From NCBI RefSeq assembly GCF_000973085.1, contig NZ_CP011280.1, forward strand, positions 398,642 to 462,641: a DNA stretch of 64,000 nucleotides, given 5' to 3'. The translations under genes were made by a program, and so were the position numbers. This DNA is from Sneathia vaginalis (GTDB taxonomy: Bacteria > Fusobacteriota > Fusobacteriia > Fusobacteriales > Leptotrichiaceae). Positions 2,949 to 14,751 of the stretch are shown here, piece after piece. The notes beneath the pieces were generated by a model. It did not search any database and was not told where the DNA came from. It saw only the letters and a program-made list of their open reading frames with translations. Positions within the stretch are counted from its first letter, which is position 1. Every line of letters begins with the position of its first letter.

Positions 2949-3656
2949 ATGAAGTTATTAGAAGTAGAATCAATGAATGTATATTACGGCGGTATTCACG
3001 CTGTTAAAAATCTTACCTTCTATATTAATAAAGGAGAAATAGTGGCACTAATAGGAGCAAATGGAGCTGGTAAGACAACTACATTACAAACTATTTCAGG
3101 TTTGTTAGTTCCTAAATCAGGTCAAATAGAATTTAAAGGTATAGATGTAACGAAAGTGAAGGCACATAAATTGGTTGAGATGGGCGTATCACATACTCCA
3201 GAAGGAAGAAGAATATTTACAGAATTAACAGTTTTAGAAAACCTAGAATTAGGAGCATATACTAGAAGTAATAAGGAAGCAAAAGAAAGTATAAAAGAAA
3301 TGTTTGAACTCTTTCCAAGACTTAAAGAAAGAAAGAATCAATTAGCAGGTACTATGAGTGGTGGAGAACAACAAATGCTAGCAATAGCAAGATCATTAAT
3401 GTCAAAACCAGAACTATTATTACTAGATGAACCATCTATGGGATTAGCACCTATACTTGTAGAAGAAATATTTAAAATTATTAGAAAGATAAATGACTTA
3501 GGTGTTACAGTCTTACTAGTAGAACAAAATGCAAATCAATCATTAGCAATTGCTAATAGGGCATATGTACTAGAAACAGGTGAGATAGTAATGGAAGGTA
3601 CAGGTAAGGAATTACTTGAAAATCAAGATATAAAGAAGGCCTATTTAGGGTCTTAA
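2949..3656 (+). CDS. livF: Branched-chain amino-acid ABC transporter ATP-binding protein LivF
   Basis: A 235-residue ABC ATPase with Walker A GANGAGKTTT (about residues 36-45), the family stretch THTPEGRRIF-like (here SHTPEGRRIF), signature MSGGEQQMLAIARSL and Walker B LLLLDEPSMGLAP. These are LivF hallmarks. It is the second ATPase of the transporter, starts on the base after the livG stop and is the last gene of the operon; a strong terminator follows within 10 bases. Confidence 0.94.
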   Translation: MKLLEVESMNVYYGGIHAVKNLTFYINKGEIVALIGANGAGKTTTLQTISGLLVPKSGQIEFKGIDVTKVKAHKLVEMGVSHTPEGRRIFTELTVLENLELGAYTRSNKEAKESIKEMFELFPRLKERKNQLAGTMSGGEQQMLAIARSLMSKPELLLLDEPSMGLAPILVEEIFKIIRKINDLGVTVLLVEQNANQSLAIANRAYVLETGEIVMEGTGKELLENQDIKKAYLGS

Positions 3657-10756: not shown

Positions 10757-11803
10757 TTGAAAAGAGTAGCAAAAATTTTTATGGTAGCTATGTTATTCAT
10801 TGTTAGCTTCTCATGTGGGAGTAAGAAAACAAATGAAGTCAATATTTACACTTGGACGTATTTCATTCCTGATGAAATAATACAAGGTTTTGAAAAAGAA
10901 ACTGGTATAAAGGTCAATATTAGTTATTATGACAACAATGACACGCTATTAACCAAGTTATTTACAGGAAGAACACAATACGATATAATATCCCCATCTA
11001 CAGATTATGTTGATATTTTGATTAAAAAAGGCTTATTAGAAAAACTTGATAAGAAAAAATTAGGGGATACATTTAAAAACTTAGATGCTGATAACCTAAA
11101 TCTATATGAATATGCTAAGGGTTATGACGATGGGTTAAATTATTCATTACCATATGGTTTTTTTGCGACAGGTATTACAGTAAATACTAAGGTATTAGGT
11201 AAAGATTTTAAAAGAGATTTAAGTATTTTTGAAGATGAAAAATACAAGGGTTCAATGACAATGTTAGATGATGGACGTGAGGTTATAGGAATGATACTAC
11301 AAAATCTAGGGTATCCATCAAATTCTAAAGATGATAAACAATTAGAAGAAGTAAAAAACATTTTATTGAAATACAAGAAGAACTTAGCTAAGTTTGATAG
11401 TACAACATTTGGTAAATCATTAGCAACAGGAGAATTTGTTGTTTCACATGGATATCCAGATGTGTTCTATGAAACAAATGAAGAAGAACAAAAAAACTTT
11501 ATGTATTTCTTACCTAAGGGAGCTATGATGTATATAGACAATATGGCTATACTAAAAGAAGCACCTAATAAAGAAAATGCATATAAGTTTTTAGAATATT
11601 TATACAGACCAGAAAATTATGCAAAATATGTTGAACTATTTAGACAAGTACCAGTAATTAAGGGAACAGAAAAATATACTAATGTAAAACCAATTGTTAG
11701 TGCTAGTGAAGTAGTTAAAAATGCTAAATTACCATTAAGTCTTGATGAAGAAGCAAAAGAAAAACAAGATAGAATATGGAATGAGGTAAAGTTAGCAAAG
11801 TAG
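10757..11803 (+). CDS. PotD-like polyamine-binding lipoprotein (extracellular solute-binding family 1)
   Basis: A 348-residue protein starting at TTG 10757; AGAGGTGAT lies just upstream and there is no better ATG. A lipobox with Cys20 (VSFSC) predicts a lipid-anchored protein. The mature part begins VNIYTWTYFIPDEII, like PotD/PotF spermidine/putrescine-binding proteins, with later segments PYGFFATGI and YIDNMAILKEAPN typical of this family. No PotABC permease or ATPase genes are adjacent, so it is an orphan here. The ligand is inferred from the family; other small cations or metal chelates are possible. A strong terminator follows. Confidence 0.85.
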   Translation: MKRVAKIFMVAMLFIVSFSCGSKKTNEVNIYTWTYFIPDEIIQGFEKETGIKVNISYYDNNDTLLTKLFTGRTQYDIISPSTDYVDILIKKGLLEKLDKKKLGDTFKNLDADNLNLYEYAKGYDDGLNYSLPYGFFATGITVNTKVLGKDFKRDLSIFEDEKYKGSMTMLDDGREVIGMILQNLGYPSNSKDDKQLEEVKNILLKYKKNLAKFDSTTFGKSLATGEFVVSHGYPDVFYETNEEEQKNFMYFLPKGAMMYIDNMAILKEAPNKENAYKFLEYLYRPENYAKYVELFRQVPVIKGTEKYTNVKPIVSASEVVKNAKLPLSLDEEAKEKQDRIWNEVKLAK

Positions 11804-11810
11804 ATATATG

Positions 11811-11843
11811 AAAATGAAGCGAAGTGAAAGCTTCATTTTTTTT
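11811..11843 (+). terminator. Intrinsic terminator after the PotD-like gene
   Basis: AAAATGAAGC / GCTTCATTTT hairpin followed by a run of T. Confidence 0.9.
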
Positions 11844-11981
11844 AGCATCTATTTTCAAAATAAATAAAAACGAATAAAAAAGTTAAGAAACTACAAGTGA
11901 CTAAAAATAAATCTACAAACAAAAGAAAGCGTTGAGTTTTTAATATGTTAACAAAGAAAATAAAAAAAAGTTTAAAAAATG

Positions 11982-12008
11982 TTGAAAATAAATGGGGGGG
12001 GGTAAAAT
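11982..12008 (+). promoter_or_regulatory. Putative phase-variable promoter with a G9 tract in the spacer
   Basis: TTGAAA (11982-11987) and TAAAAT (12003-12008) resemble -35 and -10 boxes; the 15-base spacer contains a run of nine G (11994-12002). Slippage of the tract would change the spacing towards or away from 17 bases. A caveat is that a start site about seven bases after this -10 would leave only a very short leader before the Shine-Dalgarno AAGGAG (12014-12019). A G9 run is striking in DNA this AT-rich. Confidence 0.5.
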
Positions 12009-12028
12009 TTGTTAAGGAGATGATATTA

Positions 12029-12304
12029 ATGAAAATATTTTCAAGATTTAAAGCAAGAAAAAGTATAATTACAGCTTTATTAATAAGCTCTTTTTTAAGT
12101 AGTAGAATAGGATTTGGTGAAGAAAAGAATAAGCCATTAACTGAAGCTGAAAAAACTCAAGTAGAAGAAGTTATAAAGCAATTAGGAATAGAAAGAGCTA
12201 AAACTTTATTTGACTTATTAATCAAAAAAAATGAAACAGATAAAGTAAGAGAAATCATAAAAAAAATAAATGAAGTAGAAGGAACAGATGAAGAAAAAAA
12301 GTAA
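12029..12304 (+). CDS. N-terminal part of a YadA-like trimeric autotransporter (separated by a frameshift)
   Basis: Start at ATG 12029, with AAGGAGAT at 12014-12021; upstream in-frame codons to 11945 cross the G9 run and look like leader. The 91 residues have a basic start (MKIFSRFKARKS), a hydrophobic core ITALLISSFLS and a GFGEE cleavage region: an extended-type signal peptide as in trimeric autotransporters. Then follows a charged helical segment. The frame ends in the run A7 at 12294-12300 with AAG TAA. One additional A would join it to the downstream open frame, which stays open from 12301 onward. So this is the export part of the adhesin, currently out of frame. Confidence 0.7.
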   Translation: MKIFSRFKARKSIITALLISSFLSSRIGFGEEKNKPLTEAEKTQVEEVIKQLGIERAKTLFDLLIKKNETDKVREIIKKINEVEGTDEEKK

Positions 12305-12411
12305 AAAAGGAAGATATTATTGAAAAAGGAGAGGGGCCATTTAGTAGTAATATATTAAAGGACATTAAAGACACTGAAAATAATTCAATTGTTAGAATTT
12401 ATCGATCAGGC

Positions 12412-14751
12412 GTGATAGAAATTGGAAAAGGAGCAAGTATGATAAATAATGTTGCTCTTAATAATGATGGTATATTAATAGGTACAGATGCAAAGGTTGA
12501 CGGATATTTAGGACATCCAGGAAGTATAGCTATAGGTAAAAGTGCATATGCAGAAACATTTTTTGGTGTAAGAGAGCAAATATTAAACTTTAAAAGAACA
12601 ACATTTAATAAAACTGGATATAACGCTGCATATCCGTATGATATAGATAAAATAGATACTCCTATTGCTATAGGTAGAAATAGTTATGCAAGTTCAGGTA
12701 GTGTTGTTTTAGGACAACATACATATACAGGCAAAATTGGTGATATAAATATAGAATCAATGAAAGATGGTGCCAGCAATAGAGTTAAAGGAATAGGAAT
12801 ATATTCTACAGTAGTTGGAACAAACAGTTTTGCTAATGGGACATTATCAACTTTATCGGGAGCTTATTCGATTATGACTTCACAATATGAAGGAGAAGAT
12901 AATGAAGGTGTTAATTTAGGAAAGGGTGTTGCTAATCATAATCTAAATTTAGGGGCATTAATAAACGGTTCATTAAATAGTATAGAATCTAATGAAGGTG
13001 CTAATGGTGCAGAAATTGATAAATATTCAGGTATAGCAAATTCTGTTGTTGGTTTTGCAAATAGAGCAAACAATTCTAATGGAACTATGATATTTGGTGC
13101 AGGTAACGAAATAACAAATTCTGTTGATGAAATAGGTAACTATGATGTATGTGGACAAGATGTAGAAAAATATCCTAACTCAGTAAAAGAATTAGCCGAA
13201 AATTTAAGAAAACAATATAGTGATGGTAATGTAGGAGGTTCAACTCTAGTATTTGGTAGTGGAAATAAGGTAGATTATGCGAAATATGCTAATATAGCAG
13301 GAAGTAAAAATACGATAACAGGAACTAAAGATAAAAAATCAGAAAATAATATAGTAAATGGTAATGATAATGAAATTATCGAAGCATCAAATAATATAGT
13401 TTATGGAACAAAGTATAGAATTAAAAAGAAAAGTCCTCAAACTCAAACAAGATCTACACAAGATACTGGAACACAAACAGAAGATCCAAATGGAAATATA
13501 CTATTTGGACATAATGATGAATATGTAGATATAACAGTAAAAAATACTATTGCAATAGGAGGTAATATTAAGCCTAATTTAGATAATTCAGTATATTTAG
13601 GTACAAAAAGTATGGAATCAAAAGAAGCTAATACATTATGGAGAAAAGAAAATAGAGATCGATCATATAAAGGTTATGCAGGCTTTGACCATATTGGTGG
13701 TATAGTTACAGTAGGTAACGATACATTAACACGTGTTATACAAAATGTAGCACCAGGATTAATATCAGCTACATCAACAGATGCAATTAATGGTTCACAA
13801 CTATATAAATATGTTGCTAAGCAATCTATAAATGTAAAAGCAGGAGATAAAATTATAAACGTTAAATTGGGAGATACTTTAGAGTTAAAAGGAAATGGTA
13901 TTGATATATCAGTAGATGATAAACAACCTCAAACAACACAATCTAATACTACACCACAACCAGCACCTTCTACATCACAAGAACATACAGCAACCTTTGA
14001 AGCAAAAGGAAATGTTGGAGGTTCAGATACATTTGGGTATAAGTATAGAGATGATAAAGGTAAAGAAACAGAATTAAAAGAAGGTCCTGATGGTAAGCTA
14101 TATACTGATGAATTTTTACAAAATAATGAATACAAGAATAATAAATGGGTTAAAAAAGGAACAACAGAAGATAGTATACTTAAAGATAACCGATACGACA
14201 AAAACAATGAAAAAGTAATTTTAAGCACAAAATATGGTAAGATAATTACTGATGTAGCTGATGGTATCAAAGCTAAAGATGCAGTAAATGTAAGTCAATT
14301 AAATGCTGTTAGAACAAAAGTAGAAAAGAATACTAGTGATATACAACAACTACAAAAAGATGTTAAAGAAGTAGATAAGAAATCAGACCTAGCTTTAGGT
14401 GGAGTATCAAATGCAGTGGCTATGGCTAATCTACCACAAGTAATGGGAGATAAGAAGTTTAATTTAGCTGCATCTTATGGATATTATGGTGGTTCTCATG
14501 CAGTAGCTATTGGATTTAGTGGAACAAATGACAAGCAAAACTTTATCTACAAATTAAGTGGATCAGTAAATAATAAGGGAAATCTTGCCTTTGGTATTGG
14601 TGCTGGAGTAATGCTTGGAGAAGTTAATAATAAGGATAAGAAGATTGAGGACTTAACTAAAGAAAACAAAGAAATTAAAGAAAATTTGAGAAATCAAAGT
14701 GCTGAAATACAAGAGTTAAAAGAAATTGTAAAAAGATTAATGAGAAAATGA
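12412..14751 (+). CDS. YadA-like trimeric autotransporter adhesin, head/stalk/anchor part
   Basis: The frame is open from 12301; GTG 12412 or ATG 12439 (with AAGGAG at 12427-12432) are possible separate starts, but neither gives a signal peptide. The N-terminal half has left-handed beta-roll head repeats (IAIGRNSYASSGSVVLG, STVVGTNSFANGT, AIGGNIKPNLDNSVYLG). A neck-type motif follows (APGLISATSTDAINGSQLY, near residue 450; a second DAVNVSQLNAV near 625), then a stalk. A YadA anchor comes next (FNLAASYGYYGGSHAVAIG, SGSVNNKGNLAFGIGAG), with a charged coiled coil after the barrel as in fusobacterial members. It would be a surface adhesin; without the upstream signal peptide fragment it cannot be exported. 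Confidence 0.88.
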   Translation: MIEIGKGASMINNVALNNDGILIGTDAKVDGYLGHPGSIAIGKSAYAETFFGVREQILNFKRTTFNKTGYNAAYPYDIDKIDTPIAIGRNSYASSGSVVLGQHTYTGKIGDINIESMKDGASNRVKGIGIYSTVVGTNSFANGTLSTLSGAYSIMTSQYEGEDNEGVNLGKGVANHNLNLGALINGSLNSIESNEGANGAEIDKYSGIANSVVGFANRANNSNGTMIFGAGNEITNSVDEIGNYDVCGQDVEKYPNSVKELAENLRKQYSDGNVGGSTLVFGSGNKVDYAKYANIAGSKNTITGTKDKKSENNIVNGNDNEIIEASNNIVYGTKYRIKKKSPQTQTRSTQDTGTQTEDPNGNILFGHNDEYVDITVKNTIAIGGNIKPNLDNSVYLGTKSMESKEANTLWRKENRDRSYKGYAGFDHIGGIVTVGNDTLTRVIQNVAPGLISATSTDAINGSQLYKYVAKQSINVKAGDKIINVKLGDTLELKGNGIDISVDDKQPQTTQSNTTPQPAPSTSQEHTATFEAKGNVGGSDTFGYKYRDDKGKETELKEGPDGKLYTDEFLQNNEYKNNKWVKKGTTEDSILKDNRYDKNNEKVILSTKYGKIITDVADGIKAKDAVNVSQLNAVRTKVEKNTSDIQQLQKDVKEVDKKSDLALGGVSNAVAMANLPQVMGDKKFNLAASYGYYGGSHAVAIGFSGTNDKQNFIYKLSGSVNNKGNLAFGIGAGVMLGEVNNKDKKIEDLTKENKEIKENLRNQSAEIQELKEIVKRLMRK

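What the first reader, a model, noticed from the sequence alone, without database searches (positions are those of the whole stretch)
11982..12031. G9 tract inside a putative promoter spacer upstream of a YadA-type adhesin
TTGAAA and TAAAAT are 15 bases apart, with nine consecutive G between them, in DNA where G runs are very rare. G-tract slippage between promoter boxes switches surface-protein genes in other bacteria (for example Neisseria porA). Two added G would restore the ideal 17-base spacing. This suggests on/off or graded expression of the adhesin.
Basis: partly seen in the sequence, partly recalled or inferred. Interest (0 to 1): 0.72.

Follow-up and report, generated by a model that had tools for sequence, protein, structure and literature searches.

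The report
Slippery G-run promoters driving adhesin genes
In this urogenital bacterium (most likely Sneathia vaginalis) every complete YadA-type adhesin gene has a run of 9-11 G or 14-20 T in its promoter region, so the cells probably switch their surface adhesins up and down at random by slippage of these runs, a set of switches I found no published account of.

Summary
In detail: TTGAAA (11982-11987), G9 (11994-12002) and TAAAAT (12003-12008), spacer 15, followed by a ribosome site and the ATG at 12029. It is one of a set. The 1.33 Mb genome has 13 G runs of 9-11, none of 8, two of 7; 12 of the 13 lie between -35-like and -10-like boxes upstream of YadA-type trimeric autotransporter (TAA) genes. 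The other six full TAA genes, and seven genes of an outer-membrane-like family, carry T13-T20 runs at the corresponding place. Both classes share a GTTAA box at a fixed distance upstream. Streptobacillus moniliformis has 36 TTGACA-N6-10-G9-13 promoters, nearly all before surface or secreted proteins; between sister Streptobacillus species, tract length differs in 4 of 5 promoters conserved on both sides. Best reading: family-wide transcriptional phase variation by tract slippage, of the Neisseria porA/fetA and Mycoplasma vlp kind. Length variation within the species was not testable here.

The parts
11810..11840 (+). hairpin followed by a T run: likely terminator of the upstream potD-like gene (10757-11803), so the adhesin has its own promoter
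   Evidence: fold z = -3.48, 0 of 200 shuffles as stable; the generic terminator scanner does not list it
11947..11951 (+). GTTAA box, 47 bp upstream of the G tract
   Evidence: found 46-48 bp upstream in 8 of 12 G-tract promoters and 34-36 bp upstream in 11 of 13 T-tract promoters of this genome
11982..11987 (+). -35-like hexamer TTGAAA
   Evidence: 5 of 6 match to TTGACA; same position relative to the tract in paralogous promoters
11994..12002 (+). G9 tract in the promoter spacer
12003..12008 (+). -10-like hexamer TAAAAT; spacer 15
12014..12019 (+). ribosome-binding site AAGGAG
   Evidence: sequence
12029..12304 (+). first part of the adhesin gene (signal peptide and N-terminal region, 91 aa), ends at a stop after the A7 run
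12294..12300 (+). A7 run where the two reading frames meet
   Evidence: the upstream frame stops at 12302-12304 and the downstream frame is open only from about 12286
12412..14751 (+). rest of the YadA-type trimeric autotransporter (779 aa from first GTG), in another frame; stalk about 14245-14361, membrane anchor about 14434-14607
   Evidence: Pfam PF05662 E 7.5e-18, PF03895 E 6.3e-10

Best explanation
The G9 tract is the variable spacer of a sigma-70-type promoter. Replication slippage in the run changes the -35 to -10 distance and so the strength of transcription of the TAA gene behind it: random, reversible, graded phase variation. It is one of a genome-wide set. All 18 full or near-full TAA loci of this genome carry either G9-G11 (12) or T14-T20 (6) in the promoter region, giving a combinatorial surface repertoire. 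Shown: sequence architecture, near-exclusive association with surface-protein genes, recurrence in the family, interspecies length differences at conserved promoters. Inferred: that the promoters are active, that length sets strength, that slippage is frequent within a strain.
For: Twelve of 13 G>=9 runs are upstream of TAA genes. Bimodal run lengths with none of 8. -35 and -10 boxes around the runs exceed shuffled nulls. In 9 of 12 the run is not in a reading frame continuous with the gene, so the switch is not translational. In S. moniliformis 36 of 38 unbiased G>=9 runs have TTGA 6-14 nt upstream, all 36 being TTGACA, with -10 boxes of 5-6 of 6; the reversed control pattern finds 0 there. 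Tract length differs in 4 of 5 S. moniliformis/S. notomytis promoter pairs conserved on both sides, three of them with flanks 93-99% identical. The G001 (probably S. sanguinegens) relative of this adhesin also has G9 in its promoter although the flanks differ. Precedents porA, fetA and opc: PMC5320596 and PMC6389960.
Against: No expression data, no reads, no second isolate of this species. The -35 boxes of Sneathia are weak (4-6 of 6) and the predicted transcript start falls close to the ribosome site. If the genome is strain SN35 it was sequenced with 454, so exact run lengths are uncertain. The window adhesin itself is frame-split.
Confidence: 0.85

Rival explanations
1. The tract mainly tunes the distance between an upstream activator site (the GTTAA box) and the -10 box, as in Bordetella fim promoters, rather than the -35/-10 spacing.
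For: GTTAA at 46-48 bp (8 of 12 G promoters) or 34-36 bp (11 of 13 T promoters) from the tract, which places it 51-60 bp from the -10 in both classes; chance about 1e-15 and 3e-23 if promoters were independent. T-class promoters have no recognisable -35. Sneathia -35 boxes are weak.
Against: The box is missing or shifted at 4 of 12 G promoters, and lacks a fixed place in the 36 S. moniliformis promoters, which have consensus -35 and -10 boxes. Paralogous promoters share ancestry and the window was chosen after looking, so the chance values overstate the case. A general scan for GTTAA plus a -10 is not enriched genome-wide.
Confidence: 0.25
2. The runs are fixed features (DNA bending, protein binding, leader-RNA structure) and not hypermutable.
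For: The run is kept at 9-13 while flanks diverge.
Against: Lengths differ between paralogous and orthologous promoters with conserved flanks; the run lies upstream of the predicted transcript start; bimodal length distribution.
Confidence: 0.06
3. The tract switches translation: an N-terminal extension from ATG 11945 reads through the G9 in frame.
For: The frame from 11945 to 12304 is open through the tract.
Against: No ribosome site before 11945 and a good one before 12029; in 9 of 12 sister sites stops separate tract and start codon.
Confidence: 0.03
4. The window adhesin is a decaying or silent gene and its promoter tract is a relic.
For: Frame split at the A7 run; another TAA of this genome is split at an A8 run and the giant TAA near 822-833 kb is broken in at least two places.
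Against: Both parts are well preserved, with anchor and stalk over Pfam cut-offs; a relative in G001 and a 61% identical paralogue are intact; a shift at an A run can be a sequencing error, transcriptional slippage, -1 frameshifting (the heptamer A AAA AAG is in frame) or a second slippage switch.
Confidence: 0.3

Closest known systems
Neisseria porA, fetA and opc promoters (poly-G/C in the promoter)
   Same: Homopolymer of G or C in the promoter of an outer-membrane protein gene; length sets spacing (PMC5320596: fetA poly-C between -10 and -35 alters expression; opc poly-C shifts from 11C to 12C or 14C in PMC6389960).
   Different: In gonococcus NCCP11945 only three genes are listed as transcriptionally phase variable (PMC5320596); here 12 promoters of one protein family in one genome, plus a T-run class.
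Mycoplasma hyorhinis vlp promoters
   Different: Adenine runs and lipoproteins there; G or T runs and trimeric autotransporters in a diderm here. The T-run class resembles it most.
Bordetella fim promoters (poly-C between activator site and -10)
   Same: Possible shared upstream box at fixed distance from the tract (fim is from my own knowledge, not looked up).
   Different: No regulator known here; most G-class promoters still show a -35-like box.
Phase-variable trimeric autotransporters of Neisseria and Moraxella (for example NadA, UspA1, Hag)
   Same: TAA adhesins under repeat-based control (my own knowledge).
   Different: Single genes there; here the whole TAA repertoire. For Fusobacterium nucleatum TAAs, PMC6346709 states that no study had shown phase variation.

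Membership tests
Transcriptional phase-variable promoter (porA/fetA kind) | homopolymer between -35 and -10 boxes | tested here: met
   TTGAAA-ATAAAT-G9-TAAAAT; set-wide null test
Transcriptional phase-variable promoter (porA/fetA kind) | tract length differs between related genomes with flanks conserved | tested here: inconclusive
   met for Streptobacillus promoters; not testable for this locus, no second isolate
Transcriptional phase-variable promoter (porA/fetA kind) | tract not within the reading frame | tested here: met
   9 of 12 sites closed by stops; in the window the frame is open but the start with a ribosome site lies downstream
Transcriptional phase-variable promoter (porA/fetA kind) | expression changes with tract length | not testable with these tools
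   needs RNA or reporter data
vlp-like family-wide promoter tracts | every member of the surface family has a promoter tract | tested here: met
   18 of 18 TAA loci (12 G, 6 T); the two other anchor hits are short fragments. One T case (C1:1021780) has a poor -10
Trimeric autotransporter adhesin (YadA family) | YadA stalk and membrane anchor | tested here: met
   PF05662 and PF03895 over cut-off
Trimeric autotransporter adhesin (YadA family) | signal peptide and anchor in one open frame | tested here: not met
   frame split at 12294-12304 in this copy
fim-like activator-spacing promoter | activator site upstream and no -35 box | tested here: inconclusive
   GTTAA box at fixed distance, no regulator identified; -35-like box present in the window

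The most novel reading that the evidence does not exclude
Sneathia runs its whole trimeric-autotransporter repertoire and an uncharacterised outer-membrane-like family as one combinatorial transcriptional phase-variation set with two tract chemistries (G9-11 and T13-20) under a shared upstream element, where tract length sets both the box spacing and the phasing to a common regulator.
Probability: 0.35. Interest if true: 0.75.

Novelty: new variant of a known kind. Interest (0 to 1): 0.62.

Why it matters
Sneathia and Streptobacillus are pathogens that are hard to work with, and the genome papers I could read list their adhesins without mentioning switching (PMC3535699, PMC13393775; for Streptobacillus, PMC11609424 says that virulence-associated genes have not been described from the genomes). 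If the promoters switch, adhesin content differs from cell to cell, isolate comparisons based on gene presence miss the state that matters, and that state can be read from existing sequencing data by counting tract lengths.

Tried and rejected
Chance G run: rejected by the genome-wide distribution and gene association. Translational switch: rejected for most sites by stops between tract and start codon. Riboswitch or known RNA leader: no Rfam match in 11700-12500. Relatives in genome contigs with the adhesin as query: none confirmed, own and near genomes are left out there. GTTAA-to-TANAAT pattern as a regulon search: too loose, no excess over the control. Syntenic locus in G001 through the downstream transporter gene: no match there.

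Full report
Observation. The finding is accurate to the base. At 11982-11987 lies TTGAAA, then ATAAAT, then nine G (11994-12002), then TAAAAT (12003-12008), with AAGGAG at 12014-12019 and an ATG at 12029. No other G run of seven or more occurs in the window on either strand. A stable hairpin with a T tail at 11810-11840 closes the upstream potD-like gene, so the adhesin most likely has its own promoter.

Organism. The genome held for the window is one contig of 1,330,224 bases, window GC 28.1%. Size and GC fit Sneathia vaginalis (formerly S. amnii; 28.3%, about 1.34 Mb, PMC3535699; S. sanguinegens 26.7%, PMC13393775). G014 has a chromosome of 1,662,578 bases, the length published for Streptobacillus moniliformis 9901T (PMC3035246). 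G022 has a contig of 98,448 bases, as does S. notomytis AHL 370-1.

Genome-wide test. The genome has eight G6, two G7, no G8, and 13 runs of 9-11 (eight G9, four G10, one G11). Twelve of the 13 lie 26-211 bp upstream of a start codon that leads into a YadA-type gene; in one of these (L003) a 170 aa ORF comes first. The 13th is inside a coding sequence in a phage-like stretch (endolysin nearby). Around the 13 runs, -35 and -10 matches exceed both random and locally shuffled sequence.

A second tract class. The genome has 20 hits to the YadA membrane anchor; two are short fragments. Twelve of the 18 remaining loci are the G-tract genes. The other six have T14-T20 runs upstream, in five of them 3-5 bases before a TAAAAT or TACAAT box; the sixth, at C1:1021780, has a run but a poor -10. 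The same T-run promoter, T13-T19, precedes seven genes of a secreted family starting MKKTLLLTSLVASMVAMAGTTGS or close to it, without a Pfam family over cut-off. T runs this long are outliers: the + strand of the window has three A9 and no longer A run.

A shared upstream box. GTTAA occurs 46-48 bp before the tract in 8 of 12 G promoters and 34-36 bp before it in 11 of 13 T promoters, 51-60 bp from the -10 in both classes. S. moniliformis promoters do not have it at a fixed place. It may be an activator site or reflect common descent of these promoters; I cannot tell.

Family-wide. The pattern TTGA-N6-14-G9 is found in 16 of 60 relatives, mostly Leptotrichiaceae, with the reversed control nearly empty. 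S. moniliformis has 38 G>=9 runs; 36 have exact TTGACA upstream and a -10 of 5-6 of 6, most directly after the run, and spacers are 15-22 for most, mode 19. Nearly all readable genes behind them start like secreted or surface proteins, 16 of them TAAs by their anchor. In other genera the genes are mostly, but not only, secreted.

Length variation. Between S. moniliformis and S. notomytis, five promoters are conserved on both sides; lengths are 11/10, 10/10, 11/10, 10/11, 11/10, while the roughly 500 bases of flank carry 0-4 indels. Paralogous promoters within S. moniliformis differ too (G9 and G11 at L167/L173). These are assembly consensus lengths from different sequencing projects, so single-base differences could in part be technical. 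The G001 relative of the window adhesin (49% identity, intact 854 aa frame) also has G9 before TATATACT although the surrounding DNA is not conserved.

The adhesin frame. The gene behind the window promoter is in two frames. The first (12029-12304) encodes the signal peptide; the second holds head region, stalk and anchor. The frames can only meet between about 12286 and 12304, where the A7 run (12294-12300) lies, read as A AAA AAG followed by a stop. A second TAA (L006, 7298-9873) is split at an A8 in the same direction. Candidates are an off state by slippage in the A run, a -1 frameshift or transcriptional slippage, a true lesion, or a homopolymer error: the published Sneathia genome was made by 454 at about 245-fold. 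Other genes of the window look intact, so such errors are not common.

Mechanism and limits. The most likely account is slippage in the G run altering the -35/-10 distance, as described for fetA and porA (PMC5320596). Steps shown: architecture, gene association, interspecies variation. Steps inferred: promoter activity, dependence on length, frequent switching. Nothing in the papers found describes phase variation in Sneathia or Streptobacillus beyond L-forms; the library lacks most subscription papers, so an earlier description cannot be excluded.

Verdict. A real feature of a known kind, but on an unusual scale: one protein family under promoter tracts throughout a small genome, with two tract types. 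The single site is worth little by itself; the set is a testable switching system.

Noticed in passing
L004:15783-15800, L198:1416-1431, L199:1069-1087, L200:1267-1283 and 3009-3021, L204:1368-1385, L205:1648-1662: Seven paralogous genes of an unassigned secreted, possibly beta-barrel family (MKKTLLLTSLVASMVAMAGTTGS...) share a nearly identical promoter with T13-T19 upstream of TAAAATATA.
   Followed up: partly
G000:C1:61132-61194 and 69252-69314: Two further copies of the T-run promoter with interrupted runs (TTATTTTTTTATTTTTTTT; TTTTTTTTTATATTTTTTT), perhaps locked states.
   Followed up: no
window 12294-12300; L006:7298-9873: Two TAA genes are split in the same direction at A7 and A8 runs in their N-terminal parts.
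   Followed up: partly
L003:978-7031 and L142:5950-10877: A giant TAA (about 3,600 codons) behind a G9 promoter is broken in at least two places without homopolymers.
   Followed up: partly
L002:5605-5613: The only long G run in a coding sequence: G9 after a proline-rich linker in a 689 aa ORF in a phage-like stretch with an endolysin; possibly a translational switch.
   Followed up: partly
L008:2222-2228: TTGACA-AAATAAAT-G7-TATAAT: the same promoter form with a shorter run, with no long ORF close behind it.
   Followed up: no
L144:3096-3121; L001:4254-4279: T26 runs, one upstream of a gene that looks like the heat-shock repressor hrcA, one about 220 bp upstream of a G10 TAA promoter.
   Followed up: no
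G001 contigs C2, C4, C7, C10, C12, C15, C16, C17, C18: In the sister species' draft genome long T runs sit at or near contig ends, suggesting that these runs break assemblies.
   Followed up: no
loci L022-L101: TTGACA-N-G9-TANAAT occurs in many unrelated genomes and MAGs (Clostridia, Saccharibacteria, Treponema, Helicobacter and others); G-run promoter spacers may be widespread and little studied.
   Followed up: no
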